Assembly: GCA_947476255.1 (NCBI GenBank)
Contig: CANJPY010000021.1
Span: 1-56,905 of the forward strand
From: Chthoniobacteraceae bacterium
GTDB lineage: Bacteria > Verrucomicrobiota > Verrucomicrobiia > Chthoniobacterales > Chthoniobacteraceae
Direction of reading: 5' to 3'
Length of the DNA: 56,905 bases
The notes below the pieces were generated by a model. It was not told where the DNA came from and searched no databases. It saw only the letters and a program-made list of their open reading frames with translations. A program made the translations under genes and the position numbers. Below are positions 12,546 through 29,550 of the stretch, one piece after another (positions within the stretch are counted from its first letter, which is position 1; each line of letters starts with the position of its first letter).

Positions 12546-15035
12546 ATGCTTCGCCGTCTTCTCATTGCAGTCCTAGGTATCAGCGCCGCTTGCCACGTTT
12601 TTGCACAGGACAAAAAGTCGCTCGATTTCGTGCACGATATCGCGCCGATCTTAAAACAGCACTGCGCAGATTGTCACACCGGAGACAAAAAAAAGGGCGG
12701 CTTATCGCTAAACACTCATCCTGAATGGCTTGCAGGAGGAGAGAACGGTGCGGTTTTTGATTCCAAGGCCCCTGCCAAAAGCAGAGTTTTGGAACTGATT
12801 TTCAGCGCAGATCCAGACACCGTCATGCCACCTCTGGACAAAAATCGCCCCCGCCCCACAAAAGAGCAACTCGAGTTGCTCAAATCATGGGTGGTTTCTG
12901 GAGCCGCATGGGAAAGCGGTTATGCATTTAAACGCCCAAGCTACGAGGCGCCCATCAAACCTCGCCTGCCCAGCCTGCCCTCCGCCGTGGAGGGACGCAA
13001 CCACCCACTCGACCGTCTTTTGGACGGATACCTCGCTAAAAACAAACTTGCCCTTCCAGCGCTCGCGGATGACGCAGTGTTTGCGCGCAGACTCTATCTA
13101 GACCTTCTCGGGCTACTCCCCAGCCCCGAGGTGCTCGAAAAATTTCTCAAATCAGACGCTCCGGACAAACGCAGCCAATTGGTGGACACGCTGCTGCAAA
13201 ATAAAAACGATTACACGGAGCACTGGCTCAGCTTCTGGAACGATCTCCTGCGTAATGACTACGGAGGGACGGGCTTCATCACGGGCGGACGCAAGCAAGT
13301 TTCCTCATGGTTGTATGAGGCTGTTTACACAAACAAACCCTACGACGCGATGGTCCGGGAGCTCGTGAATCCGTCTCCCGAAACCGAAGGCTTTGCCCAA
13401 GGCATCACATGGCGGGGCACCGTAAGCGCCAGCCAAACTCGCGAGGTCCAATTCGCCCAATCCATTTCCCAGTCTTTCCTCGGATTGAACCTCAAATGCG
13501 CGTCCTGCCACGACAGCTTCATCGACAAGTGGAAACTCACCGACGCCTACGGCCTCGCAGCCGTCTACGCAGATAAGCCCGTGGAAATCGCACGCTGCGA
13601 AAAGCTCACGGGAAAAACCGCTGTAGCGGCGTGGCCGTTTCCCGAAATAGGTCAAATCGAGCCAAATGCACCGCGCGAGGTACGCCTGAAACAGCTTGCC
13701 GCCCTGATGACACATCCGGACAACGGATGGTTTGCCCGTACCATTGTAAACCGGCTTTGGGCTCGCCTCCTAGGCCGTGGACTGGTGCACCCAGTCGATG
13801 CTATGGGAACACAGCCGTGGAGCGAAGAAATCCTCGATTACCTGGGCTGGCATCTCGCTCAGTCCAAATACGACCTCAAGGCGACCCTGCGTCTTATTGC
13901 GACCTCTCGTGCCTATCAATCGAATGCCGTGCCTCGTGTGAAGGATGACGAAGTAGGCGCTTATGTCTTCAAAGGACCTCGAGCCAAACGCCTGAGCGCT
14001 GAACAATTTTTGGACCTCATCTGGCAACTCACCGATTCCGCGCCCCTCTCCCAAGATGCTCCCCTTCGACGCGGCGAACCATCCCAAACCCTCCTCGCAT
14101 CAACTACGTTAGCAGCAGTCCCCATTCGCCATGCAGGCGACCTTGCAGCGCAAAGCCCTCCGCCCGCCGACCCCAAAGCCACGCCCGCCACACCGAAGCA
14201 AAACCTTGTGGCTTTGCAAAAAAACATCGAACTTCCCTCCAAACCCGTTCGTGTGTCCGGAATCCTGAGCGGCTCGCCAGCGGTTCGCATTCTCGTCAAT
14301 GGAGCGCTCCAACAGGCTCCAAAAACCACTGCTTACGGACGCATCACGGATTTACAGCTCGCCGATGTTTTTGCCAAGGGCTCAAACCTGATCGTTCTCC
14401 TGCAAACCACCCCGAATGGAAAGACCTCGCAAGCTTGGATGGAACTGGAGTTTCTTTTTGCAGATGGCTGCCGGCAAAGAGTCTACACCGACGCAACTTG
14501 GACAAGCGCAACAGGGTTTCCCGAAGAGTTCGTAAAAAGCGGCAAGTTCTCGCAAAAAACACCGGAGTTCACCAACGCGGCATGGATGCCGGTCGCTGTG
14601 AACTCGACTCAAAACAGCGACGCACTGCGACAAACGCTACTTCCTGATTTTGTTTGGGCCATTCAACCCCGCCTCCCCGCACGAGCCTCCCTGCTCAAGT
14701 CAGATCTCCTGATGCGCACTTTGGGCAGACCAAATCGAGATCAAATTGTGACCTCGCGTCCGAATGATCTAAGCACACTAGAAGCATTGGATCTTTCGGC
14801 AGGAAAACGCCTCTCTGAACTGGTCGCGCTCGGCGCAAAAAAAATTGCGCAACGCCCCGAAATTTCCGCGGAGTCTCTCACGCACTGGCTTTTTCTACAC
14901 GCCCTCGCACGCCCGCCGCAAGCGACAGAACGCGAAGCGGCTCTCGAACTCTTGGGCACCAGTCCTTCCGTGCAAAACATCGAAGACCTCCTCTGGACAG
15001 TCTGCATGCTTCCCGAATTTCAACTCATCCGCTGA
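12546..15035 (+). CDS. Secreted c-type cytochrome DUF1549/DUF1553 protein
   Basis: The protein has 829 residues. The signal peptide is MLRRLLIAVLGISAACHVFA. A planctomycete-type cytochrome c domain follows with CADCH (Cys40-His44, one haem) and its usual MPP (VMPPLDKNRP) axial-ligand region. DUF1549 then carries a second CASCH (about 318-322), and DUF1553 fills the C-terminal half, with a long non-conserved insert around residues 505-700. These proteins are typical of Planctomycetes and Verrucomicrobiota and almost always precede a DUF1501 gene, as here (25 bases). Their role is not established; electron transfer coupled to polymer or sulfated-sugar breakdown is often proposed. Confidence 0.88.
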   Translation: MLRRLLIAVLGISAACHVFAQDKKSLDFVHDIAPILKQHCADCHTGDKKKGGLSLNTHPEWLAGGENGAVFDSKAPAKSRVLELIFSADPDTVMPPLDKNRPRPTKEQLELLKSWVVSGAAWESGYAFKRPSYEAPIKPRLPSLPSAVEGRNHPLDRLLDGYLAKNKLALPALADDAVFARRLYLDLLGLLPSPEVLEKFLKSDAPDKRSQLVDTLLQNKNDYTEHWLSFWNDLLRNDYGGTGFITGGRKQVSSWLYEAVYTNKPYDAMVRELVNPSPETEGFAQGITWRGTVSASQTREVQFAQSISQSFLGLNLKCASCHDSFIDKWKLTDAYGLAAVYADKPVEIARCEKLTGKTAVAAWPFPEIGQIEPNAPREVRLKQLAALMTHPDNGWFARTIVNRLWARLLGRGLVHPVDAMGTQPWSEEILDYLGWHLAQSKYDLKATLRLIATSRAYQSNAVPRVKDDEVGAYVFKGPRAKRLSAEQFLDLIWQLTDSAPLSQDAPLRRGEPSQTLLASTTLAAVPIRHAGDLAAQSPPPADPKATPATPKQNLVALQKNIELPSKPVRVSGILSGSPAVRILVNGALQQAPKTTAYGRITDLQLADVFAKGSNLIVLLQTTPNGKTSQAWMELEFLFADGCRQRVYTDATWTSATGFPEEFVKSGKFSQKTPEFTNAAWMPVAVNSTQNSDALRQTLLPDFVWAIQPRLPARASLLKSDLLMRTLGRPNRDQIVTSRPNDLSTLEALDLSAGKRLSELVALGAKKIAQRPEISAESLTHWLFLHALARPPQATEREAALELLGTSPSVQNIEDLLWTVCMLPEFQLIR

Positions 15036-15060
15036 TTGAAGACACACGCCATCTCATCCT

Positions 15061-16503
15061 ATGAACACACTGTCCTTGGATCCTCAAAACACACGCCGCG
15101 ACTTTTTAAAGAAACTCTCGGCCGCCTCCATGGCCGCCTGGATGGCACGCGAACCTCGTGCGTTTGGGTCGGTTGAAAAAGTGATCCACCCAAAGGCCAC
15201 GGCAGACTCCTGTATTCTTCTGTGGATGGGCGGGGGCATGGCCGCTCCCGACAATTTCGATCCCAAGCGTTACCTCCCTTACGAGAAGGGGCGCCTCATG
15301 AAGGACATTTTGTCCACATTCCCAGCCATCGACACCGCTGTGGATTCCATCAAAATTGCCCAAGGACTCGAAAATATTGGCAGTGTCATGGATCGAGGGA
15401 CGCTCGTGCGCTCCCATGTCCAACCGGATCTCGGAAGCATTCTACATTCCCGCCACCAGTATCACTGGCACACGGGGTACGTTCCTCCTCAAACGGTGGC
15501 GTGTCCGCACATTGGTGCGTGGATGTCCAAGGTTCTCGGTCCCCGCAATCCCGTGATGCCGGCCTTCATTAACGTGGGACAACGCATCGAAGGCGTCGGT
15601 GAATCCGAGGAAATCAAGGCGTTCACCACCGCCGGCTTTTTCGGAACGGAATTCGGTCCGATGAACCTCCCCTTTCCCGAAGAAGCCGCTCAATCGGTGC
15701 GCCCGCCCGCAGGAATGGAGCCTGGCCGTTTTGAAAACCGTTACAAACTCTATCGCAAACTCGTAGACCAAAGTCCGAATCGAGACTTCCTCAGTGATTA
15801 TCAGCGCGAGTCCATGTTGCGCTCGTTTGAAAACGCCCAGCGCCTCTTGGGCTCCAAAGAAAAGGACGCCTTTGACCTTTCCCTCGAACCCAAGGAGTCT
15901 TTTGAAAAATACGATACCGGTCGTTTTGGACGAGGCTGCCTTCTGGCCCGGCGCTTGGTGGAAAACGGAGCACGTTTCGTCGAGGTCACCACCGAGTATG
16001 TCCCCTTCCTCCATTGGGACACCCATGGCAGCGGCCACGAAACACTGGTGCGCATGCACAAGGAAATCGACCTTCCCATCGCCACTCTCATTCGAGACCT
16101 CGAACAAAGGGGCCTTCTGGAACGCACCCTGGTCATCATCGCCACGGAATTTAGCCGCGATGCCATGGTGGAAGGCACCGTGGGTTCAAACGCAGGAGAC
16201 CAGGCAGCTCACAAGGGGGATACAATGGAAGACCCCAAACACTACGGCCTGCACAGGCACTTTACAGGCGGCTCCTCGCTCGCGCTCTTCGGAGGTGGCG
16301 TCAAAAAGGGCTTCCTCTATGGGAAAACGGCCCCGGAACGCCCGTGCCTCGCGGTGGAAAACCCTGTGAGCGTCACGGATATGCACGCCACCATTTTCCG
16401 TGCGATGGGGATCAGCCCAAAAACCGTGTTCGACATCGAAAACCGCCCGTTTTACGCCACAAGCGACGGAAAAGGAGAGCCGGTGCAAGCGCTCTTCGGG
16501 TAG
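15061..16503 (+). CDS. DUF1501 (sulfatase-like) protein with Tat-type signal
   Basis: The protein has 480 residues. The N-terminus TRRDFLKKLSAASMAAW (Arg12-Arg13) is a twin-arginine signal, so export in folded form is expected. The body has LLWMGGGMAAPDNFDPK, WDTHGSGHE and TLVIIATEFSRD, the pattern of DUF1501, which belongs to the alkaline-phosphatase/sulfatase fold group. It is paired with the DUF1549/DUF1553 gene and is probably translated from the same mRNA. The enzymatic activity of DUF1501 has not been settled. Confidence 0.88.
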   Translation: MNTLSLDPQNTRRDFLKKLSAASMAAWMAREPRAFGSVEKVIHPKATADSCILLWMGGGMAAPDNFDPKRYLPYEKGRLMKDILSTFPAIDTAVDSIKIAQGLENIGSVMDRGTLVRSHVQPDLGSILHSRHQYHWHTGYVPPQTVACPHIGAWMSKVLGPRNPVMPAFINVGQRIEGVGESEEIKAFTTAGFFGTEFGPMNLPFPEEAAQSVRPPAGMEPGRFENRYKLYRKLVDQSPNRDFLSDYQRESMLRSFENAQRLLGSKEKDAFDLSLEPKESFEKYDTGRFGRGCLLARRLVENGARFVEVTTEYVPFLHWDTHGSGHETLVRMHKEIDLPIATLIRDLEQRGLLERTLVIIATEFSRDAMVEGTVGSNAGDQAAHKGDTMEDPKHYGLHRHFTGGSSLALFGGGVKKGFLYGKTAPERPCLAVENPVSVTDMHATIFRAMGISPKTVFDIENRPFYATSDGKGEPVQALFG

Positions 16504-16620: not shown

Positions 16621-18537
16621 ATGTCCACTTCCCCTTCGTATGGTATTCGCGGAATCGGCGCCAAAATCGTCATCAGCGGACTGCTGATCGCGCTCACCCC
16701 TCTTCTCATCTGCAGCATCGTTGCGATTCGCAAAGCCTACCGTGACCGCGAAACCTCGCAAGGCGTCACCTGCCAGGGCGCGGTAGAACAGGTGGCAGAC
16801 AAAATAGACCGCCTTCTCTTCGAGCGCTACGGCGATGTGCAGGCGTTTGTGTTTCACCCGGGCGCGGCCGACAAGCCTGAGGTCGTGGCCCAAACCGCGG
16901 ACACCTTCACCAAGATGTACGGCTTCTATGACCTGATGATGGTCGCCGACGCCAGCGGAAAAATCATCGCGGTGAACACCGTAGACGCAGAGGGGAAACC
17001 CATCGACTCCAAATCTTTGATCGGCAAAAGCGTCAAGGGTGAACCCTGGTTTGAAGACTGTATCAGCGGAAAAATCAAAGAAGGCGAAAGCTACACGGGT
17101 GATTTGGCCGCGGATCCTCTTGTAGCGCAGGTCTACAAGTCCCAGGGGCTGTCCCTGAACTTTTCAGCGCCCGTCCTGAACGCAGAAGGCAAACCCATAC
17201 GCGTCTGGAGCAACCGAGTCTCGTGGGAACGCTCCGTACGCGAGGTGCTTTCAGGTTTGGATAAAATTTTTAATACAAGTGTGCTGGGGCAAACCGAACG
17301 CACCTCCATCGAAGTCCTTTCGAATAAAATGCAGATATTGGAGGAATATCCAAAGTCCTCGATTGGCACCTCCGTTGGCGCGCCAACGGTGACGCTTCCC
17401 CAATTGACCGGAAAGAGCGGCTTTTTCATCTCCTCGGAAGCAAACGGGCAACGCGAACTGGTGGCACATGCGCCCTTTTCGGGCTTTCTCTCGTACAAGG
17501 GGCAGGGTTGGCGCCTCGTGCTGCACAATCCCCTCGCGGCTGCAATGCAGGAGCCCAAAGCGCTGCGCGATCTCTTTATTTTATTGATCGCGATTTCCGT
17601 TGTAGGCACCTGCGTGGCAACCCACCAGACCGTGGGATATTTTCTGATCCGCCCCTTGGGCAGTCTCACCAATAAAACGAAACGCCTCTCGGAAGGGGAT
17701 GCAGCGTTTGACCTGCCCGAGGTCCACCGCACCGACGAACTTGGCGCTCTGGCGCGTGCCCTCGAGATCTTCCGGAAAACATCCGATAAAATACGCACCA
17801 TGACCGGCCATACAGCGCTGTCGGTGGACGAAGCTGGTACGGCCGTGGGACAAATTTCCGACGGTGCGCGAACGCAAACGGGCCAGTTGAATCTGGTGTC
17901 GACCGCTTTGAATGAATCCTTCAGCGCCATCAAACTGGTGACCAGCAATGCCGTGCGGGCGCGGGAACGGGCGGAAGGCGCTTCGCGTTCCGTTGAGAGC
18001 GGCCATACCGCTGTCGCTCAATTAGTTCCAATCGTCGAGGCGATTGCGCAAAACAGTCGGAAAATCACACAGATCACACAGGTTATTGCACAGATCGCGA
18101 ACCGCACCCATATTTTGTCCCTGAACGCAGCCATTGAAGCTGCGCGCGCAGGCGAACACGGCAAAGGATTCGTGGTGGTGGCGCAGGAGGTCGGAAAACT
18201 TGCGGAAAGCTCCGCTCAAAACGCGAAACAAATTGCGGACATTGTTGAGCAGGCGTCCGCCGATTCACAGCGTGGTAAAGTCGCAACCGAAACCGTCAGC
18301 GATGCCATGGTGTCCATTGCCACAGGCACCAAGGAAACCACTGAGATGGTGCGCTCCATCGCAGTCGCGATGGATGAACAACAGGCAACACTCTCCCAGA
18401 TCAGCGGGAATATCAGTGAACTCCGAAACATCGCGATGGCAAATTCCGCGTCGTCGGAGGAAATCACGGCAACGATGATCCAGCTCTCAAAACTCTCCAA
18501 CGACACACGCCTCCTTGCAGAATACAAGTCGGCTTAA
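16621..18537 (+). CDS. Methyl-accepting chemoreceptor
   Basis: The protein has 638 residues from ATG 16621; an ATG at 16588 and a TTG at 16504 are also in frame but add nothing recognisable. The first membrane helix (about 12-35), a periplasmic Cache-like sensor domain (about 40-312) and the second helix (about 316-338) are followed by HAMP and a signalling coiled coil whose hairpin tip reads [19 protein letters not shown]. No CheR-tethering pentapeptide is present at the end. It opens the chemosensory operon, 105 bases before cheR, and is the only receptor in the window. The ligand is unknown. Confidence 0.9.
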
Positions 18538-18642
18538 ATTCATGCCCTCAGGCACATACGACGGCGGGTGTTTCAGTAGGCAGATCGCTGACTGTCATAC
18601 CTCCAGCCGTCGCGCTGTCACTCCCCACCCTGCCCGCTGAAC

Positions 18643-19512
18643 ATGCTTCTCGCAGATCAACTAAAGGCAGCCCTGCTCCAAAGGGTGGGAATGCGTGGCG
18701 ATATCACCGCTGCAAAAATAGAAGCGCAGCTTGCCAAAATACCCGCCGACGAACGCGAGTTCTGGGTTCAAAACACCGTCAATCTGCCACCACAAAGTCC
18801 GGCTTGGCAGGCTTTTATCGAGCCGTTTCTCATTCACGAAACGTACTTTTTCAGACACGAAAACCAGCTCGAATTTCTCGCCACCAAAGTGTTGCCCGAT
18901 TTGATTCAGGAACGCATCCATTCCAACCGGCACGAATTTCGCATTTGGTGCGCAGCGTGTTCCTCAGGTGAAGAGGCTTTTACGGCAGCACTGCTTTTGC
19001 GCGAAGCTCTCCACAGCTCCAGAGACTTCAGCAAGATCGACTGGAAAATCTCCGTTACAGGCACCGACCTGAGCGCTGAGGTCCTCGCCAAGGCACGCCA
19101 CGGCGAATACCACGCTAGTGCAGGGCTCAACAGCTTCAGAGACATACCCGCGTTCGCCAAGCATCACTTTCCAAGCATTTTCCAACACGCTGAAAAAACA
19201 TGGCGCCCCGACGACGCGCTTAAAAGAACGGTCCACTTTCAGCAGCGCAATCTTGTCACGGATCCAGCTCCAGTCTCCGATGTGGATTTGATTATGTGTC
19301 GCAATGTCCTCATCTACCTCGATGAATCCAGCGTGCGGCGCAGCATTGCCACCATGCAGGCAGCGCTGCGCCCGGGAGGAGTCCTTGTCCTGGGGCCTGC
19401 GGACATGCTCAAACACACGGACGGTTGGGAATTATTGACCAACCAGAAAGCCATGTTCTGGCGAAAAACAACGCCGTTACAAACTTCCAACTCAACCCCA
19501 GCACAGCGATGA
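18643..19512 (+). CDS. cheR: Chemoreceptor glutamate methyltransferase CheR
   Basis: The protein has 289 residues. It has a small helical N-terminal domain, then a class I methyltransferase domain with IWCAACSSGEEAFTAALLL (SAM motif), FHARHGEY-like region ARHGEYHAS, and DLIMCRNVLIYLD (motif IV). CheR adds methyl groups from SAM to receptor glutamates for adaptation. Its TGA overlaps the cheB ATG (ATGA at 19509-19512), so the two are translationally coupled. Confidence 0.92.
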   Translation: MLLADQLKAALLQRVGMRGDITAAKIEAQLAKIPADEREFWVQNTVNLPPQSPAWQAFIEPFLIHETYFFRHENQLEFLATKVLPDLIQERIHSNRHEFRIWCAACSSGEEAFTAALLLREALHSSRDFSKIDWKISVTGTDLSAEVLAKARHGEYHASAGLNSFRDIPAFAKHHFPSIFQHAEKTWRPDDALKRTVHFQQRNLVTDPAPVSDVDLIMCRNVLIYLDESSVRRSIATMQAALRPGGVLVLGPADMLKHTDGWELLTNQKAMFWRKTTPLQTSNSTPAQR

Positions 19513-20591
19513 AACTCCGCGTCTGTCTGGCGGTCAAATCCACCTTCACTGCGATCGCTCTCCGCTCGAGCCTCGCAACCTATCCTGACACGCAAATGCT
19601 GGGGGAAGAACGCACGTGCCAGGGAACAGAAAAACTGCTGGCTCAGCAGCCCTCAGGACTCGCGGTGATCGACGTTGATCTCTTTGGCGACCCTGATTCA
19701 CAGGGCCTCATCGCGCTTCTTGCGCAGCGGCGCGAGCCCACGATTCTCATCAATGCACGGGGCACGCCGCTTCCCTCCAATCTGGGCAGCAAAGCGGGGA
19801 TCCGGATGCTCACGAGCCGGCGCCCGGGGGAGCTCGATATTGGCCACATTCAGGAACTTCTTATTCCCGCGCTCAAGGCCGCGCGCGAAGCCTGGGTGCA
19901 GGCCGGACCAACCGCCAACGCAACGCACATTCCTGTTTCGAGCTTTGCCACAACTGCGACCCAACCGAATATCGTGCAGCGCAGGGGTGGAGTGGCGGAA
20001 CTCATTGTGCTCGGCGTCTCCACAGGCGGCCCCACGCTCCTCGTAAAGATGCTCAAGGATCTGGCCACTCCTACCATCCCGATGCTCATTGCCCAGCACA
20101 TGCCAGCGAGCGAAACCGCCGGGTTTGCACTCCGCTTGTCTGAGGAAATCAACCAGTCCGTTGTTGAAGTCGGCGCGGGCCCTCTCGCAGGGGTCGGGCG
20201 TATCGGCCTCGTGCAAGGAGGCAAGGACTTCCAAATACTGCGCAGCCCTGCAGGTGGTTTTCGACTCAAAGAAGCAGTGGTTCCCCACAACCCGTTCCAC
20301 CCGAGTATTGACCACCTCTTGCAAACCGCTGCAGAAGCGGATATTGCAGTTCACACCGCGATCCTCACCGGCATGGGACAAGATGGGTCTGTGGGTGCGC
20401 TCTCCTTAATGCGAAAGGGTTTTCCAGTGATCGCCCAGCGTCCCGAAACATGTGCAGTTGCTGGGATGCCCTCGGCCGCCATCAACAACGGGGCCGCTCA
20501 ACACGTGCAGTCCCCTGAGCAAATCGTGGAGTCCCTCAACCGCTGGTTTGCAGCCGCGAAAGCTCCACGGGGTGAAGGAGGCACCCTATGA
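19509..20591 (+). CDS. cheB: Chemoreceptor methylesterase CheB with degenerate receiver
   Basis: The protein has 360 residues; ATG 19509 was chosen because it overlaps the cheR stop and removes an implausible leader. The C-terminal methylesterase has the full triad: Ser171 in GVSTGGP, His197 in AQHMP and Asp292 in TGMGQDG. The N-terminal receiver keeps an Asp at the end of its third strand (AVIDVDLFGD) but lacks the usual acidic pair at the end of strand one (reads CLAVKS), so Mg-dependent phosphorylation by CheA may be lost or altered. It sits within the cheR-cheB-cheA operon and overlaps both neighbours. Confidence 0.9.
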   Translation: MKLRVCLAVKSTFTAIALRSSLATYPDTQMLGEERTCQGTEKLLAQQPSGLAVIDVDLFGDPDSQGLIALLAQRREPTILINARGTPLPSNLGSKAGIRMLTSRRPGELDIGHIQELLIPALKAAREAWVQAGPTANATHIPVSSFATTATQPNIVQRRGGVAELIVLGVSTGGPTLLVKMLKDLATPTIPMLIAQHMPASETAGFALRLSEEINQSVVEVGAGPLAGVGRIGLVQGGKDFQILRSPAGGFRLKEAVVPHNPFHPSIDHLLQTAAEADIAVHTAILTGMGQDGSVGALSLMRKGFPVIAQRPETCAVAGMPSAAINNGAAQHVQSPEQIVESLNRWFAAAKAPRGEGGTL

Positions 20592-21025
20592 GCGCCACCG
20601 CCACAAAACGCATCCCATTCATTCTCACTTCCAAAGACCCTTCATTTGCGGGATTGATGGAACATCTTTGCGACGAATCCTCCCTGCATTTGCTCACAAC
20701 GGCAGGGCCTTCGATTACTCTTGAGACAGTTCGGAGCAACACTCCGGCCTTCGTGCTGCTCGATCTGGACAGCATCGAGCCCGTGGAAACCACGCGCCTG
20801 ATTATGAAACTCGCGCTCGCGAGCAGTGCCTTCGTTTTTCTCACGGGAAGCAGCGCCGTCCCGGGTGCGCCTGCCATGGACCAGTTCTACCAAGCTGGCG
20901 CGCATGGATCGATCTTGAAACCGGATGGAAAAACAAGTGTGAGCCTTGCAGGCGAGCCTGGAAAAGCCTTCCTCGAACAATTGGTCCGCACCACCCACCG
21001 CTTTCTTGCAAGGAGGTTGGAATGA
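20588..21025 (+). CDS. Stand-alone receiver-like protein, degenerate
   Basis: The protein has 145 residues and overlaps both neighbours by ATGA. It has the size and outline of a receiver domain: FILTSKDPSF (strand one), FVLLDLDS with Asp59 in the phospho-acceptor position, FVFLTGSS (strand four) and SILKPDG with the conserved Lys. The acidic pair of strand one is reduced to one Asp or missing. A Pro/Asp and Gly rich tail (KPDGKTSVSLAG) resembles the KPSG linker seen in CheB receivers. It may be a phosphate sink, a partner for the receiver-less face of CheB, or a non-phosphorylated adaptor. It is not a typical CheY. Confidence 0.65.
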   Translation: MSATATKRIPFILTSKDPSFAGLMEHLCDESSLHLLTTAGPSITLETVRSNTPAFVLLDLDSIEPVETTRLIMKLALASSAFVFLTGSSAVPGAPAMDQFYQAGAHGSILKPDGKTSVSLAGEPGKAFLEQLVRTTHRFLARRLE

Positions 21026-23766
21026 GTGTGGACCCGGCTATGGTGCAGGAATTCGCCACCGAGGTGGCGGAACACATTGATGCCTCCGAGCAAATTCTTG
21101 TCGGTGCGAGCATGCAGCAACCGGAACAGGGAGACATCAATCTTTTGTTCCGCAGCTTTCACTCGATCAAAGGACTGTCGCGCGTGATCGGGTTTGGCGC
21201 GCTCGAGGGCATTGCTCACGAAGCGGAGTCCCTTCTGGCTACGGTGCGTAGCGGGGCTCAACCACTTACGGAGAGCTCGACGAACCTTCTTCTTCAATCC
21301 CTTGATGCCGTAAAACAAGCGCGGACAGATCTCATGGAAGGCCGTGAGTTCAAATCCAACGACAAACTTGTTTCAGCCCTCAAAGCAGCCACCAAAGGAG
21401 GTGGAAGCGCCACTGCTCATGCTGATACCGGGCCTCAAGGAGAAGCCGAAGAGAGCACTCCTAGTTTTTTACATGCGGATCTTTATTTCGACCAGGACAC
21501 GCTTGTCGCTCAGGCCGAATTATTTGAAGAATTGCTTCCGGGCATGGCCCGATATGTCCTGGACTCCACCGCAGCCAGTGCAGAGGCCATTGAGGAAGAT
21601 TTCGACACGCTTATTTTTGCGCTGGATAAAATCCGCCTTCACGCTTTGGCAGAGGCTTTACAGGCCTTCAGGACCGAGCGTACACCGCTGCGATTCGCGC
21701 GTTTTCTAAGGCTCTTGGACAACTTCCGAAATCTTCTGGGAGTTTCCTGCGGATATGCCGAAGTCGCTCTCACGCTCAGGGCTTGGTTTACGGAAGCACT
21801 GTTGGCGCTCCTTGAGTCCAAGCAACCGCAAAACGCCCTCGATTATCTCAGCGTTCTGCTGCCAAACAATCCCTTCAGCGTTATCCTAACGCAGTTGGAT
21901 GATTCCGATTTACTACCGGAGGAAAAAGACGAATTTTTACGACTGGCGGCGGAGGCCTTAAAGACGGACCTGGAGGCCGACGCCGCTGCCACCTCTGCTC
22001 TGAGCGGCATGGTTGCAGAGCGAATGCGCGACCGTTTGCAACGGGCCTATAAACCTCAACCCGCCGCACTCCGTTTTCTAGAAACGCGCAAGCTCGATAC
22101 AGAGCTCTTTTTGCGAGTCCCGCCACATCTCTCGGAGCGACTCTCGCAGATGTATCAAAGTAAAAACGCAGACTTTTTTGAAGTCCTCATCCAGATGCCT
22201 TCCACGAGATCGGCATTTGTTGAGTTCGCAACCAAGGCCGCAGAGTCATTGACTCCCATTTTTTCCGAAAGAGCCTCCATCGAAGGAATGCAATCCATTG
22301 CACTCCTAATTTTTGCCCAGACAGACGAAGAGCAGTTGCGCACCAAAGTCACAGCGTGCTTTTCAAATCCAGACCTTCTCATCCTGCGAAAGCTCGACGG
22401 CCGCCAAACAACGGCTCATTACGGCCTCAAGAGCAAACCTTCTGCAAATGCAAGTGCCGGCGGTGGCGCGCAAGTACGCGTTCCCGTGGAATTGATGGAC
22501 GCCATGTTCGGCCGAATCGGACAGTTTTTCAGTGTCGCCGCTCGGTTCAACGCGATGGTGCACGACAGCGAGGCTCCTGATATTTTGAGGGAACTTTCAG
22601 ACTACAGCGTCCTTCACGCGCCCCAGTTGCTGCCCAAAATTGACTGGCTCATCCGCCAGCAAAACGATTTCAGTTCTCTTGAAGCAGAGGCGCACAGGTT
22701 GATCTCGCTGATTCACGAGACCACGCTTGGACTGCGTGTGATTCCCCTCGAAACCCTGTTTGGTCGCTTCCCTCGAATGGTGCGGGATTTGGCGCAAAAG
22801 CAGAAAAAGCTGGTCCGCTTCGATGCGAGATCCAAAGGCATCAGAGTGGACAACGGCATGGTGGAACTGCTCGCGGACCCGCTGATGCATATGCTGCGCA
22901 ACAGCGTTGATCACGGCATTGAGCCCCCGGAAGACCGCGTCGCCGCAGGCAAACCTCGCACCGCCGTACTCGTGCTTTCCGCTGAACAACGAGGCAACCG
23001 AATCATTGTCGAGATCCACGACGATGGGCGTGGAATCAACATCGAAAAAGTGCGGGCCAAAGCAGTGACGGCCGACCTCGTCACGGAAGAAGAAAGCCTG
23101 AAATTGAGCGACGAACAGATCGCACGTTTTATATTCACGCCGGGCTTTTCAACCGCAGACAAAATCACAGACACCTCCGGACGCGGTGTGGGCATGGACG
23201 TGGCTTTGGTGAACGTCACAAAGTTGGGGGGTAAAATCGACATTCAAACGCGGCAGGGCAATGGCACGGTATTCCGCCTCGACATGCCTCTCTCCAAGGC
23301 CATCCAACCCATGCTCCTGGCCGAAACGGGAGTTCAGACGGTAGCGCTTCCCGATAGAATGGTAGTGGAGGGTACCGTTGTTTCCTGCGAAGAATTACAG
23401 TGGGTGAACGGCCAGCGTTCCATTCTGCTGCACGGCCGTTTTTTGCCCGTCTTCAAACTCGTAGACCTTTTGCGACTTCCCTCGCCTCCGCCTCAGGAAG
23501 AGGCACAACTCTCGATTATCGTCTGCGAATTTAATGGAAGGCGCGTCGGCGTCGAGGTTCATAAAATTCTGCGCAGAAATGACATGCTGATTCAGGAAAT
23601 GCACCCCCGGATCGCACATTTACCCGGCATCGGCGGCATTTCAACACTGGGTACGGACCGCATTGTGATGGTGATCGACCCCGAGGGCCTCTTCGAACTC
23701 GCAAAGCGACATACGGTTTTTGGACTGCGCAACCACAATATCCGCGTCGAGGAGGGACAGATCTAA
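21022..23766 (+). CDS. cheA: Chemosensory histidine kinase CheA
   Basis: The protein has 914 residues. The HPt (P1) domain has phospho-acceptor His47 in FHSIKG. A long middle region (about 120-470) without a clear P2 signature follows. The dimerisation and ATPase part has N-box MHMLRNSVDHGIE, G1 DDGRGI and G2 TSGRGVGMD, then a C-terminal CheW-like P5 domain ending near residue 905. It would be coupled to the receptor through CheW-like proteins. The middle region is longer than in E. coli CheA (654 residues). No receiver is fused at the C-terminus. The ATG overlaps the previous stop. Confidence 0.93.
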   Translation: MSVDPAMVQEFATEVAEHIDASEQILVGASMQQPEQGDINLLFRSFHSIKGLSRVIGFGALEGIAHEAESLLATVRSGAQPLTESSTNLLLQSLDAVKQARTDLMEGREFKSNDKLVSALKAATKGGGSATAHADTGPQGEAEESTPSFLHADLYFDQDTLVAQAELFEELLPGMARYVLDSTAASAEAIEEDFDTLIFALDKIRLHALAEALQAFRTERTPLRFARFLRLLDNFRNLLGVSCGYAEVALTLRAWFTEALLALLESKQPQNALDYLSVLLPNNPFSVILTQLDDSDLLPEEKDEFLRLAAEALKTDLEADAAATSALSGMVAERMRDRLQRAYKPQPAALRFLETRKLDTELFLRVPPHLSERLSQMYQSKNADFFEVLIQMPSTRSAFVEFATKAAESLTPIFSERASIEGMQSIALLIFAQTDEEQLRTKVTACFSNPDLLILRKLDGRQTTAHYGLKSKPSANASAGGGAQVRVPVELMDAMFGRIGQFFSVAARFNAMVHDSEAPDILRELSDYSVLHAPQLLPKIDWLIRQQNDFSSLEAEAHRLISLIHETTLGLRVIPLETLFGRFPRMVRDLAQKQKKLVRFDARSKGIRVDNGMVELLADPLMHMLRNSVDHGIEPPEDRVAAGKPRTAVLVLSAEQRGNRIIVEIHDDGRGINIEKVRAKAVTADLVTEEESLKLSDEQIARFIFTPGFSTADKITDTSGRGVGMDVALVNVTKLGGKIDIQTRQGNGTVFRLDMPLSKAIQPMLLAETGVQTVALPDRMVVEGTVVSCEELQWVNGQRSILLHGRFLPVFKLVDLLRLPSPPPQEEAQLSIIVCEFNGRRVGVEVHKILRRNDMLIQEMHPRIAHLPGIGGISTLGTDRIVMVIDPEGLFELAKRHTVFGLRNHNIRVEEGQI

Positions 23767-24266
23767 TGATTGATCACGTGTCCGCCCGTTGTGACAAGTT
23801 CAGGCTGCTGTTTCCAACACGCAACATCGGGGCAATCATCCCCTTGCCTTCCACAACGTTTATCGCTCCCTTAAGGTCTGTCCACAAAAACGGGCCGGAA
23901 GTGATCGCAGTGGATCTCCGCCGTCTTCTCAATGCGCAAATTTACGAAGGGCAGTCCTCCTGCATTCGCTTGAACTGGGTCTCCAGCGATTTCGAACGCA
24001 GAGCCATTCTGATTGTTGATGCCGTCGATGAAATTGTGAATTCGCCCCACGGCCAATTATTGAAACTCCCATTGCTTCCGCCTCGGGTTCTTCAGTTTTG
24101 CGATGGCCTGCTCCACGATGCTGATGGCACCTACCGGATCAGTGTCCGCCCCGACGTGAACTGGCCCATGAAGCCCCTGAGCGAGGGCAGGCTTTGGCGG
24201 CGGGCTCTGGTGGCCCTTCACGAAGAAAGAACGGACCAGCAAAAACAATCCACCCCGCTTGTATGA
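23766..24266 (+). CDS. Divergent CheW-like coupling protein
   Basis: The protein has 166 residues and its ATG shares one base with the cheA TAA. Sequence identity is low, but the order of elements fits a CheW fold: FRLLFPTRNIGAIIPL, then VIAVDLRRLL, then RRAILIVDAVDEIV, then a segment LPLLPPRVLQFCDGLL. CheW bridges receptor and CheA. The assignment rests on this pattern plus its place between cheA and the response regulator. It could instead be an unrelated beta-rich protein special to this operon. Confidence 0.55.
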   Translation: MIDHVSARCDKFRLLFPTRNIGAIIPLPSTTFIAPLRSVHKNGPEVIAVDLRRLLNAQIYEGQSSCIRLNWVSSDFERRAILIVDAVDEIVNSPHGQLLKLPLLPPRVLQFCDGLLHDADGTYRISVRPDVNWPMKPLSEGRLWRRALVALHEERTDQQKQSTPLV

Positions 24267-25996
24267 TGGAAGCTGCATCCCCCACTCAAGCCTCAGGTCC
24301 CAAAACGGTTCTGGTTGTAGACGACAGTAATATCATGAGGCGTCTGGTGAGCGAAATCGTGGGCATGGACCCAGATTTCAAAGTTGTGGACACCGCTGAG
24401 AACGGCAAGATCGCCTTGCAAAAGGTGCGCCTGCTCAAACCGGACGTCATTCTGCTCGACATTGAGATGCCGGAACTCTCTGGTTTGGAGACACTTCGCC
24501 GCCTTGGTTTGAGGAGCCCGTCCAAGGTGGTCATTTTATCCTCCCTCGGAGGAGAAGGGACGCCCGAACGTGCAGAAGCTCTCAGACTCGGAGCCGCCGA
24601 GGTTCTAGACAAACCATCGGGTTCGGTGAGCATGGACATTAAGTCCAGCCGGGGCTCTGCCGTCATGCGTGCGCTACGCCGCGTCACGGGCCTGCCACTG
24701 GAGGACACCGATACTCCAACCGACGCCGAAGAAGCTCCCATTGAACTCGGCCCGCCCGAGGGAGCTGCACTACGCTCCAACGCACTGTTGCTCATGCTAA
24801 ATTCGGTGAAGACAGCGATGCTCGCCTTCGATGAGAAAGGCGCGCTCGCTTTCGCAAATGCGCGAGCACTCAAACTTCTGGAACGCGACAAAGTCGAACC
24901 CGGCACGATCACCCTCGAGGAACTTTTCGGCGATTATAACTCGATGTTTGCGGGGGATATACGCGGCGTCATCGATTCCGGAGAGGCGCGAATGGACTTC
25001 ACCGTAGATTACTCCACCGAAAGCGGAGAGTGGCTCCCCTTGCTTGCCTCTGTCACTCCCACGCCCGCGCGACTCAAAGAATTCGCTGCGGTTCTCGTCA
25101 CGATAGAGGACACCACCGCAGAACAGAACCTGCGCAAGGTACTGGACAAGGTGATGTCGAGTGCGGTCACCGATGCCGTGGTCGGAGGCGAAGACCTTGC
25201 GCTCGGAGGAAAACTGGCGGAGGCCACGGTGCTCTTTAGCGATGTACGGAGTTTCACAAAACTATGCGAGGGCCAGGGCGCGGAAGCGGTTGTACACATG
25301 ATGAACGAATACTTTGCGTTCATGGCAGACGTTATTAGAGGCAACTACGGAGTCATCGACAAATACATCGGCGACGCCATCATGGCTCTGTTTGGAGTGC
25401 CTAAATCCACGGGAAACGACGCCCAAAATGCGGTTCAAGCTGGATTTGCGATGCTTCAGGCGCTCGACCTTCTAAACAGCGACCGGGAAAAGGAAGGGCG
25501 CATTCCTTTTAGAATCGGCATCGGGCTCGCAACGGGCAGCGTCGTGGCCGGACTGTTAGGCTCACCCGAGCGTATGAACTACACGGTCATGGGCAATTCT
25601 GTGAATCTTTCTGCCCGCATCGAAAGTCTCACGAGTCACTACGGTGCCCAACTTTTGGTGTGCAGCGAAACGTTCCGGGCTCTCAAGAATCCGTATCGTT
25701 CACGCCTGATTGATAAAATAAGAGTGAAGGGACAGAGCAAACCGGCGGCACTGTATGAAATTCTGTATGCCGATGCTCCTGAACAGGAAACGCAATGGTT
25801 GGGCGCGTATTCGGATGGCCTGGCGGCGTACGAAGTCGGAAAATTCAAGGACGCCCTCGCCCTTTTTGAAAATGCCCTCAAATTCAACCCCCTCGACAAA
25901 GCCGCTAAAGTTTTAGAGTCCCGCTGCAAGATATTGCTGGAACGCCCCCAACCGGATTGGGATGGCGTGTGGTCGATGGAATCAAAATCGGGCTAG
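24263..25996 (+). CDS. Response regulator: receiver-PAS-like-class III nucleotidyl cyclase
   Basis: The protein has 577 residues; ATG 24263 overlaps the previous stop (ATGA). Residues 12-135 are an intact receiver: VVDDS acidic pair, phospho-acceptor Asp66 in LLDIEMPELSG, VILSS and VLDKPSG. A linker and PAS-like domain (about 170-290) follow, then a class III cyclase. Metal-binding Asp327 (LFSDVRSFT) and Asp371 (KYIGDAIMALFG), Lys367 typical of ATP-preferring enzymes, and the NLSARIE Asn/Arg pair are all present, so it should be active. A TPR-like segment ends the protein. CheA phosphorylation probably controls cAMP (or cGMP) synthesis. This is the only intact receiver in the operon. Confidence 0.88.
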   Translation: MMEAASPTQASGPKTVLVVDDSNIMRRLVSEIVGMDPDFKVVDTAENGKIALQKVRLLKPDVILLDIEMPELSGLETLRRLGLRSPSKVVILSSLGGEGTPERAEALRLGAAEVLDKPSGSVSMDIKSSRGSAVMRALRRVTGLPLEDTDTPTDAEEAPIELGPPEGAALRSNALLLMLNSVKTAMLAFDEKGALAFANARALKLLERDKVEPGTITLEELFGDYNSMFAGDIRGVIDSGEARMDFTVDYSTESGEWLPLLASVTPTPARLKEFAAVLVTIEDTTAEQNLRKVLDKVMSSAVTDAVVGGEDLALGGKLAEATVLFSDVRSFTKLCEGQGAEAVVHMMNEYFAFMADVIRGNYGVIDKYIGDAIMALFGVPKSTGNDAQNAVQAGFAMLQALDLLNSDREKEGRIPFRIGIGLATGSVVAGLLGSPERMNYTVMGNSVNLSARIESLTSHYGAQLLVCSETFRALKNPYRSRLIDKIRVKGQSKPAALYEILYADAPEQETQWLGAYSDGLAAYEVGKFKDALALFENALKFNPLDKAAKVLESRCKILLERPQPDWDGVWSMESKSG

Positions 25997-26046
25997 AAGC
26001 CCGCATGAGATTCACGAACAGGCAGGCTCTCAATCATGAATATCCT

Positions 26047-27429
26047 ATGTCCCAGATGAACTTACTCTGCTGCAAGACGGAGGATCTCACCGTTGCGATA
26101 CCGTTGGACCGCGTCATCGGGGTGGTGGAAAGCGGGTTGCTGACTCCATTGCCCTATTCGGGAGACGCCTTCGAAGGGTTGGTCGAAGCGATTGGTCAGG
26201 TGATGCCCCGGGTAAATCTGGCCCAACTGCTCGGCGGCAAGCAACCGGAGGGAGGAATTCTGGTGGTGGTGATGGACAAAGGCGGTTCCCTCGCCCTTCG
26301 AGTGCAACAGGTGACTTCCATGCTCACGGTTGACGGCGAGAATGTCCTCGCAAACGCGGGCCGCGCCCGCGAGCGGCATGAACTGTTCATGGCTGAGTTC
26401 GAGCACAACGCCGAGCGCCACTTTCTTTTGGATATCGACCGACTGGCGGCAGCCGACTCCCTGCGCGTGCTCCCTCCTGACGGTGAGGTCATGCTCGCGG
26501 AAGCGCTTCCCCCAGCGCACGCCGAGGAGTTTGTTGTCGAACCCCACATCCCGTTTCTTCTCGTCGAAGTGGGGGGGGAAACGTACGCCTTTGAATCGTC
26601 CGAGGTCGAAGAACTCCATGTTTCGGGCCCGATCCGCGAGATGCCCGGAGCGCCCGCATGGATGCTGGGCTTAATCGACCTTCGCGGTAAACCCGTTGTC
26701 GCTCTCTCCACGGGCATGCTTCTGGGACGCGCGCATTCCAACGCCCGGGAAGTATGCCTGCTTACCCAGCTTGAGGGAGGTGTGGAGGTGGCGCTTTTCG
26801 TAAACCGCGCGCTCGGACTCGATCGTTTTTCTCCTGATAAAATCTATGCCATGTCTCAACCCATGGCCGGGGTTCGCAGTTATATCGTTCTGGGCGAGGA
26901 TCATATTGTTGGAATTATCAGTCCGCAAAAATTGGTGGAGCAGGTGCGCACACAATTAGCCACCGCCATTCCTGAAGATCCCTGGTCGACGGGCGGGAAA
27001 CCGCAGGAAGTGGAGCCCGTTGAGCATCACCAACTCTTGACAGTACGCGTGGGAGACGAATTATTTGGACTCACCCTCGAAAGAATAGAACGCATCTTGG
27101 CTTCCGTACGACTCACTCCGTTGCCGACAACAGTGGCGCATTTTGATGGCATGGCAGACGTGGGAGACGGCGTCATACCCGTCATCGATTTACGCAAGCA
27201 GGTGCACGGGGGCGGGGGCAGCGGGGGCGAACCGCCTTGTATCCTGACCATGCTCGAGGGAGCCATGACTGGAATTTTGGTGGATCAGGTTTTAAGCATC
27301 CGAGACGTGCCGGCAGACCGATTTGAACCAGTAAAGGATGGCTCAAAACTACCAATTTCGCACGTGGTCCCCCTAGAGGGACGTATGGTTTCTGTGCTAA
27401 CGATCGACAGACTGCTCCCCGCAGCCTGA
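26047..27429 (+). CDS. Triple CheW-domain protein
   Basis: The protein has 460 residues from ATG 26047; in-frame ATGs at 25957 and 26005 would overlap the cyclase gene or lengthen the leader, so the start is uncertain. Three CheW domains follow in a row: one from LLCCKTEDLTVAIPLDRVIG, one from PFLLVEVGGETYAFESSEV, and one from HQLLTVRVGDELFGLTLERI. The third has the well-kept DLRK strand (VIPVIDLRKQ). Multi-CheW proteins can crosslink receptor and kinase arrays with altered geometry. It ends the chemosensory operon. Confidence 0.85.
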   Translation: MSQMNLLCCKTEDLTVAIPLDRVIGVVESGLLTPLPYSGDAFEGLVEAIGQVMPRVNLAQLLGGKQPEGGILVVVMDKGGSLALRVQQVTSMLTVDGENVLANAGRARERHELFMAEFEHNAERHFLLDIDRLAAADSLRVLPPDGEVMLAEALPPAHAEEFVVEPHIPFLLVEVGGETYAFESSEVEELHVSGPIREMPGAPAWMLGLIDLRGKPVVALSTGMLLGRAHSNAREVCLLTQLEGGVEVALFVNRALGLDRFSPDKIYAMSQPMAGVRSYIVLGEDHIVGIISPQKLVEQVRTQLATAIPEDPWSTGGKPQEVEPVEHHQLLTVRVGDELFGLTLERIERILASVRLTPLPTTVAHFDGMADVGDGVIPVIDLRKQVHGGGGSGGEPPCILTMLEGAMTGILVDQVLSIRDVPADRFEPVKDGSKLPISHVVPLEGRMVSVLTIDRLLPAA

Positions 27430-29350: not shown

Positions 29351-29550
29351 CCAGCAGGCGACCCCTGTCGGCCTTAAAAACTCGGAGCGTTAGCGTCTCT
29401 TCAAAGAAACCAGCGCCCCATTCATCCGTTTCAGTTGTACGCCGTACCCTTCACAGGGTGCGGCGACTTCGTTCCAAGAGGTTACCCCCCCTTTTTCCCA
29501 TACGACCTTGCGCGAAATCTGCAGGTCGAGTAACCCCTCCCTCTCCTCAC

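What the first reader, a model, noticed from the sequence alone, without database searches (positions are those of the whole stretch)
16621..27429. Chemosensory operon whose only intact receiver drives a class III nucleotidyl cyclase
Receptor, CheR, CheB, CheA, CheW-like proteins and a receiver-cyclase are encoded in a row, mostly with ATGA or 1-base start/stop overlaps. No CheY, CheC, CheD, CheZ or motor gene is seen. Of the three receiver-type proteins, CheB's receiver and the small 20588-21025 protein lack the acidic pair, while the cyclase receiver (Asp66) is complete and its catalytic residues Asp327, Asp371 and Lys367 are present. This implies a receptor-to-cAMP (or cGMP) phosphorelay comparable in layout to Wsp (which makes c-di-GMP) but with a different second messenger. 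Alternative-function chemosensory systems are known; this particular gene set is not one I can name.
Basis: partly seen in the sequence, partly recalled or inferred. Interest (0 to 1): 0.7.

Follow-up and report, generated by a model that had tools for sequence, protein, structure and literature searches.

The report
Chemotaxis-type sensor operon making cyclic AMP
Some bacteria of one Verrucomicrobial family carry a conserved gene set in which a chemotaxis-style receptor and kinase appear to be wired not to a swimming motor but to an enzyme predicted to make the messenger cyclic AMP, through a receiver domain of the kind normally found on the chemotaxis enzyme CheB.

Summary
The eight genes at 16621-27429 are real and conserved: same order and strand in 4 other genomes of the family, plus 2 partial copies. 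The cyclase keeps its class III catalytic residues and the Lys/Thr pair of adenylate cyclases in 6 of 6 orthologues, so cAMP is favoured. Its receiver is intact, strongly conserved (86-99%) and CheB-like, while the operon's own CheB has an N-terminal region that no receiver model matches. The small protein keeps one acid of the pair, the acceptor Asp and the Lys in 5 of 5, so it may still take phosphate. FliG and two other che clusters with CheY-like proteins lie elsewhere in the genome. A second chemosensory-cyclase operon, with a differently built cyclase, occurs in 7 of 77 Nitrospinota genomes. Receiver-cyclase regulators in chemosensory clusters were listed in 2012 (PMC3447774), so this is a new variant of a known kind. 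A candidate effector, a SthK-like K+ channel, is present in 6 of 6 carriers. Phosphotransfer and cyclase activity are untested.

The parts
16621..18537 (+). methyl-accepting chemoreceptor: 638 aa, dCache-like ectodomain, HAMP, MCP signalling domain; no tethering pentapeptide seen at the C-terminus (ends LAEYKSA; read by eye)
   Evidence: dCache_1 listed for 5 of 5 orthologues, best E 3.4e-7; window copy only E 0.023, 14.7 of 45 bits; signal domain 80-96% identical to orthologues
18643..19512 (+). CheR methyltransferase
   Evidence: PF01739, 6.1e-44
19509..20591 (+). CheB methylesterase with an N-terminal region of receiver size that no receiver model matches; Ser171, His197, Asp292 (catalytic triad as recalled) kept in 5 of 5
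20588..21025 (+). small CheB-type receiver-like protein: second acid D17, acceptor D59 and K111 kept in 5 of 5; first acid replaced by K or S
   Evidence: CheB receiver 3t8y E 1.2e-4; hhalign to the cyclase receiver, probability 94
21022..23766 (+). CheA: Hpt with His47, about 350 aa of unassigned region, kinase core, one CheW-like domain
   Evidence: His47 and the N- and G-box residues tested identical in 5 of 5; box names recalled
23766..24266 (+). divergent CheW-fold protein
   Evidence: CheW in 4 of 6 orthologues, best 1.1e-5; window copy not among them; 15 hits with E <= 1e-3, all CheW, CheA or chemotaxis core-unit chains
24263..25996 (+). response regulator: CheB-type receiver (14-121), CheB-like linker (119-147), PAS-like (178-290, inferred from alignment to GAF-PAS-cyclases; no Pfam match of its own), class III cyclase (320-500), TPR-like C-terminus (inferred)
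26047..27429 (+). protein of three tandem CheW domains

Best explanation
This is an alternative-function chemosensory system that turns an extracytoplasmic signal into cAMP. Shown by sequence: a dedicated receptor, CheR/CheB adaptation enzymes, a CheA with intact phospho-histidine and kinase motifs, four CheW domains outside CheA, and a receiver-PAS-cyclase with the phosphorylation and catalytic residues intact, in one conserved operon. Inferred: the receptor sets CheA activity through the CheW proteins; CheA-P His47 phosphorylates Asp66 of the cyclase receiver; phosphorylation acts through linker, PAS and helix on the cyclase dimer, raising (less likely lowering) cAMP; CheR and CheB reset the receptor. 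The receiver is of CheB type and the operon's CheB has no recognisable one, so kinase output appears moved from phospho-control of adaptation to messenger synthesis. The small receiver is probably a phosphate sink or P1-binding modulator. A SthK-like K+ channel is the best candidate cAMP target.
For: Same eight genes, order and strand in 5 of 5 complete loci (window included) of two genera; two partial copies consistent. Five coupled junctions. Cyclase D20, D21, D66, K117, D327, K367, D371, T441, N448, R452 identical in 6 of 6. K and T match CyaC 1wc1 and CyaB 3r5g, not the E and G of 2w01. The receiver is the most conserved stretch compared against 4 of 5 orthologues (86-99%); against L072 CheA's P4 is one point higher, 87 to 86. 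CheB type: NCBIfam CheB models 113 and 84 bits, next family 64; best solved structures CheB 3t8y and CheY6, which was crystallised with CheA3 P1; Foldseek ranks 3t8y first; tree puts it on the CheB side. Two receivers found in the window, the other in a hybrid kinase. CheB-CheR-CheA-(receiver-GAF-PAS-cyclase) operon in 7 of 77 Nitrospinota genomes. SthK-like channel in 6 of 6 carriers.
Against: No biochemical data. The genome has other che clusters with CheY-like proteins and FliG, and 6 of 6 carriers have FliG, so cross-talk to a motor cannot be excluded. The small receiver is a second possible acceptor. Carriage is patchy: 5 of 12 genomes of the genus, 6 of 213 of the order, many incomplete drafts. 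None of the 5 cNMP-binding proteins of this genome showed a CRP-type DNA-binding domain in the stretch seen (two frames ran off the fetched locus), and the channel was not looked for in genomes lacking the operon. The CheB side of the receiver tree rests on an 83/84 split that also holds 2 non-CheB rows and the small receivers. The AlphaFold model of the cyclase is poor (mean pLDDT 53).
Confidence: 0.7

Rival explanations
1. The operon mainly feeds motility: this CheA phosphorylates a CheY encoded elsewhere, and the cyclase is a side branch or sink.
For: FliG in 6 of 6 carriers; a CheY beside CheB/CheR in contig C38 and a CheY-like protein in C142.
Against: Both other clusters have their own CheA; the operon's complete receiver is in the cyclase and is very strongly conserved; in 5 of 5 complete loci the gene junctions leave no room for a further gene between the eight.
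Confidence: 0.12
2. The cyclase makes cGMP rather than cAMP, as known bacterial guanylate cyclases do.
For: A close solved relative is 2w01, which I recall as the cyclase domain of Synechocystis Cya2, a guanylate cyclase, although its record is labelled adenylate cyclase.
Against: 2w01 has E where this has K367 and G where this has T441; 6fht, nearly the same cyclase sequence in the alignment but with K, is labelled adenylate cyclase; CyaC 1wc1 and CyaB 3r5g have K and T. K and T are identical in 6 of 6 orthologues and are seen by eye in the 3 Nitrospinota cyclases printed.
Confidence: 0.08
3. The small receiver is the real first acceptor and the system is a branched relay or switch in which it controls CheA or the receptor array, with the cyclase read out indirectly.
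For: D17, D59 and K111 kept in 5 of 5; profile-related to CheB-type receivers and to the cyclase receiver.
Against: First acid lost in 5 of 5; it is, with the divergent CheW, one of the two least conserved proteins of the operon (27-61% identity); no family model matches it.
Confidence: 0.15

Closest known systems
ACF (alternative cellular function) chemosensory clusters with receiver-mononucleotidyl cyclase regulators (listed in PMC3447774, section 9 read; Wuichet and Zhulin 2010 not held, recalled)
   Same: che cluster with a multidomain response regulator whose output is a mononucleotidyl cyclase
   Different: that survey covered CheR-TPR clusters and the text read gives no locus, function or receiver type; this CheR has no TPR match, the receiver is CheB-type, and CheB's N-terminal region matches no receiver model
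Wsp system (WspA-F and WspR, recalled)
   Same: receptor, CheW-like proteins, CheA, CheR, CheB and a receiver-cyclase in one operon
   Different: WspR carries a GGDEF domain and makes c-di-GMP; here a class III cyclase predicted to make cAMP
Pil-Chp system of Pseudomonas aeruginosa with CyaB (PMC3019171, passages read)
   Same: a chemosensory system that raises cAMP through a class III cyclase
   Different: in the passages seen the effect is CyaB-dependent and may run through FimL or ChpA; here receiver and cyclase are one protein in the che operon
Rhodobacter sphaeroides CheY6 (PMC2817712, passages read)
   Same: second-best solved-structure match of the cyclase receiver; takes phosphate from CheA3 P1
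   Different: CheY6 is recalled as a stand-alone receiver of a motility system; here the receiver is fused to a cyclase
Nitrospinota CheB-CheR-CheA-(receiver-GAF-PAS-cyclase)-CheW operon (found here)
   Same: chemosensory genes directly followed by a receiver-class III cyclase with a related PAS-cyclase part
   Different: adds a GAF domain (2 of the 7 scanned); receiver on the CheY-like side of the tree; CheB and CheA each carry a receiver in 7 of 7

Membership tests
Chemosensory (che) system | MCP, CheW-fold protein and CheA with phospho-accepting His and kinase domain | tested here: met
Chemosensory (che) system | CheR and CheB with catalytic residues | tested here: met
   (CheB Ser/His/Asp in 5 of 5; CheR by family match only)
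ACF class | output regulator is a multidomain response regulator with a non-motor enzyme | tested here: met
ACF class | class assignment by phylogeny and gene order in the Wuichet and Zhulin scheme (recalled) | not tested
   reference set not available; source paper not held
ACF class | output is not flagellar or pilus motility in the cell | not testable with these tools
   6 of 6 carriers have FliG and this genome has T2SSE-family ATPases
Class III adenylate cyclase (IIIb type, label recalled) | two metal Asp, substrate Lys and Thr, transition-state Asn and Arg | tested here: met
Class III adenylate cyclase (IIIb type, label recalled) | cAMP synthesis | not testable with these tools
   needs assay
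Wsp system | GGDEF diguanylate cyclase output | tested here: not met
   Guanylate_cyc, no GGDEF match
CheB-type receiver | closest to CheB receivers in family models, structures and tree | tested here: met
   (moderate tree support 83/84; holding cyclase and CheB receivers together costs nothing, p-AU 0.497)

The most novel reading that the evidence does not exclude
A bacterial chemosensory array whose main output is a cAMP signal, arising by transfer of a CheB-type phospho-acceptor domain to a cyclase, and read by a SthK-like cyclic-nucleotide-gated K+ channel: receptor to cyclase to gated channel, the same logic as animal smell, evolved at least twice in bacteria (Chthoniobacteraceae and Nitrospinota).
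Probability: 0.15. Interest if true: 0.8.

Novelty: new variant of a known kind. Interest (0 to 1): 0.5.

Why it matters
Direct control of cAMP by a chemosensory kinase through its own receiver-cyclase is, in the listings and passages I saw from my searches of the held library, listed as a domain combination but not described as a system. Here is a conserved operon with an intact, CheB-type receiver, a substrate prediction and a candidate effector, so each step can be tested with purified proteins. It also suggests how an output is rewired: a phospho-acceptor of the kind that elsewhere tunes adaptation sits on the messenger enzyme, while the operon's CheB has no recognisable one.

Tried and rejected
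A literal absence of CheY in the organism was rejected: two other che clusters carry CheY-like receivers. cGMP as product was considered and set aside on the E/G versus K/T positions. The idea that the Verrucomicrobial and Nitrospinota receiver-cyclases share one fused ancestor was tested: the trees keep them apart, but joining them is not rejected (receiver p-AU 0.061; PAS-cyclase p-AU 0.176, a quick tree of 50 proteins that I picked from the loci held), so two origins are favoured, not proven. Before I dropped the 5 small receivers and 8 mostly long-branch rows (41 of 54 rows kept). Profile comparison of CheB with the two other receivers gave nothing. The full-length AlphaFold model of the cyclase was too weak for mechanism (mean pLDDT 53). 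The CheW-fold model rests on one of five AlphaFold models (74.8; the others 32-37), but Foldseek and Pfam agree. Two loci were not counted as cyclase-che operons: L143 (Trichocoleus) has che-like genes downstream of a cyclase with a divergent gene between, and L093 has a CheR-like match some 5 kb away.
Full report
What is there. The window is contig C21 of a 5.15-Mb, 93% complete draft genome. Its taxon is not told; contigs with the same operon are titled Spartobacteria, Chthoniobacteraceae, Chthoniobacter or Verrucomicrobia, one implausibly Akkermansia, so I place it in Chthoniobacteraceae (for the lineage). Eight genes run in one direction from 16621 to 27429: receptor, CheR, CheB, small receiver-like protein, CheA, a CheW-fold protein, receiver-PAS-cyclase, and a triple-CheW protein. 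Four junctions overlap by 4 bases, one by 1 base, and two have gaps of 105 and 50 bp.

It is conserved. A CheA search of 213 genomes of the order found full-length orthologues (61-82% identity) in 4 other genomes and a contig-end fragment (82%) in a fifth; the other listed matches are at 26-37%. In all 5 complete loci (window included) the eight genes have the same order and strand; the partial copies G397 and L111 agree as far as they go. Carriage is 5 of 12 genomes of the genus and 1 of 4 of a second genus, many being incomplete drafts. In 387 genomes sampled across the phylum, 136 had a match to the cyclase at E <= 1e-30; among the listed matches only the window's own covers the receiver, the others starting at residue 177 or later. 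Four of these relatives were scanned for domains (L006, L007, L008, L011): all four are GAF-GAF-PAS-cyclases, as is L080; the genome's own L067 is a CHASE2-cyclase and L068 an FHA-GAF-cyclase.

The cyclase. Residues numbered on the 577-aa protein: metal Asp327 and Asp371, Lys367, Thr441, Asn448 and Arg452 are identical in 6 of 6 orthologues. In the PDB alignments the Lys and Thr positions agree with CyaC (1wc1) and P. aeruginosa CyaB (3r5g), not with the Glu and Gly of 2w01; 6fht, close to 2w01, has Lys and Gly and is labelled adenylate cyclase. That 2w01 is a guanylate cyclase, the roles of these residues and the label class IIIb are recalled. So the likely product is cAMP.

The receiver. Asp20, Asp21, Asp66, Ser93 and Lys117 are invariant in 6 of 6. 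At 99, 99, 86, 88 and 97% identity to the five orthologues it is the most conserved stretch compared in 4 of 5; against L072 CheA's P4 is 87 to its 86; the PAS-like part falls to 40-77% (CheR, CheW and triple-CheW were not split into domains). It is of CheB type: NCBIfam CheB models score 113 and 84 bits against 64 for the next family; the best solved structures are the CheB receiver 3t8y (5.8e-26) and R. sphaeroides CheY6 (2.5e-24, and a second CheY6 entry), then two more CheB entries. Even the CheB linker motif (KPSGSVSMDIKSS here) aligns with CheY6 and in part with 3t8y. Foldseek ranks 3t8y first. In a 54-row receiver tree an 83/84-supported split has on one side the cyclase receivers, all 12 CheB receivers, the 5 small receivers and 2 others, and on the other side the 7 Nitrospinota cyclase receivers with CheY-like and kinase-borne ones.

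The other two receivers. CheB keeps Ser171, His197 and Asp292 (5 of 5), but its first 125 residues match no receiver model. The small protein is recognised only by profile (CheB receiver 3t8y, E 1.2e-4; cyclase receiver, hhalign probability 94). The hhalign alignment sets K16 and D17 against D20 and D21, D59 against D66, and K111 against K117. So one acid is lost, and the second acid, the acceptor and the Lys are kept in 5 of 5; its Thr86 falls one position off the switch Ser in these alignments. It may bind or briefly hold phosphate.

Signal input and coupling. The receptor ectodomain is dCache-like (5 of 5 orthologues listed, best E 3.4e-7, but the window copy only 0.023); its ligand is unknown. 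CheA has His47 and the N- and G-box residues tested identical in 5 of 5, plus about 350 residues without assignment. The protein at 23766-24266 folds like CheW.

The rest of the cell. The genome has FliG, and so do 6 of 6 carriers. Two more che clusters are present: C38 with CheR, CheB, CheY, two receptors, CheW and CheA, and C142 with CheA (cut by the contig end), CheW, a receptor and a nearby CheY-like protein on the other strand. Three more class III cyclases are present; two were typed above, the third was not examined. Of 5 cNMP-binding proteins none showed a CRP-type domain in the stretch seen. One is a channel with Ion_trans and cNMP domains whose best solved relatives are the SthK cyclic-nucleotide-gated K+ channels (4e-62 over residues 206-454); it has a homologue at 49-92% identity in the other 5 of 5 carriers. 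It is the best effector candidate, but it was not looked for in non-carriers.

A second lineage. A scan of the species-genome collection with two peptide patterns from the cyclase gave 210 relatives, of which the best 80 were kept; 6 of these 80 are copies of this operon (five of them the contigs already in hand) and 3, all Nitrospinaceae, have che genes directly upstream of the cyclase. There the protein is receiver-GAF-PAS-cyclase (2 scanned). A search of 77 genomes of that phylum had matches in 45, full-length in 7, and in 7 of 7 CheB, CheR and CheA precede it, with CheW-like and receptor genes in the same cluster. Trees keep the two lineages apart but do not reject a common origin (p-AU 0.061 and 0.176).

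How it most likely works. Receptor and CheW proteins set CheA activity; CheA-P phosphorylates Asp66; the linker, PAS and helix pass this to the cyclase dimer; cAMP changes; CheR and CheB reset the receptor, CheB probably without phospho-control. Steps shown are the parts, their residues and their conservation; every arrow is inferred. That a receiver of this kind docks on a CheA P1 domain is known for CheY6 and CheA3 (PMC2817712, passages read).

Compared with what is known. Receiver-mononucleotidyl cyclase regulators in chemosensory clusters were listed in 2012 without loci or function in the text I read (PMC3447774, section 9). In P. aeruginosa the Chp system raises cAMP through CyaB, possibly via FimL (PMC3019171, passages read). 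Wsp is the architectural twin with c-di-GMP (recalled). Ten literature searches showed, in the listings and the passages I opened, no description of this operon or of the Nitrospinota one; the library lacks most subscription papers. Verdict: real, conserved, plausibly functional; a new variant of a known kind.

Noticed in passing
L115, L125, L089, L204-L207: Conserved Nitrospinota chemosensory operon with a receiver-GAF-PAS-class III cyclase after CheA, 7 of 77 genomes.
   Followed up: partly
L157:427-1872 (contig C125): SthK-like cyclic-nucleotide-gated K+ channel, homologues in all 6 operon carriers.
   Followed up: partly
window 29458-31965: PAS-PAS hybrid histidine kinase with a C-terminal receiver just downstream of the operon; a relative lies downstream of the operon in L075 too (58% identity).
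   Followed up: no
window 12546-16503: Two genes, one read by eye as a DUF1501-type protein (label recalled), directly upstream of the operon and kept there in L070.
   Followed up: no
L077; also L104, L108, L124: L077, titled Akkermansia muciniphila, carries this family's operon (73% identical cyclase), so the title looks wrong; titles such as Rhizobium or Klebsiella pneumoniae on L108 and L124, and Cyanobium on L104, look doubtful but were not tested.
   Followed up: no
window 21022-23766, residues 126-480 of CheA: About 350-residue region between the Hpt domain and the kinase core, only 37-68% conserved and without a family match.
   Followed up: no
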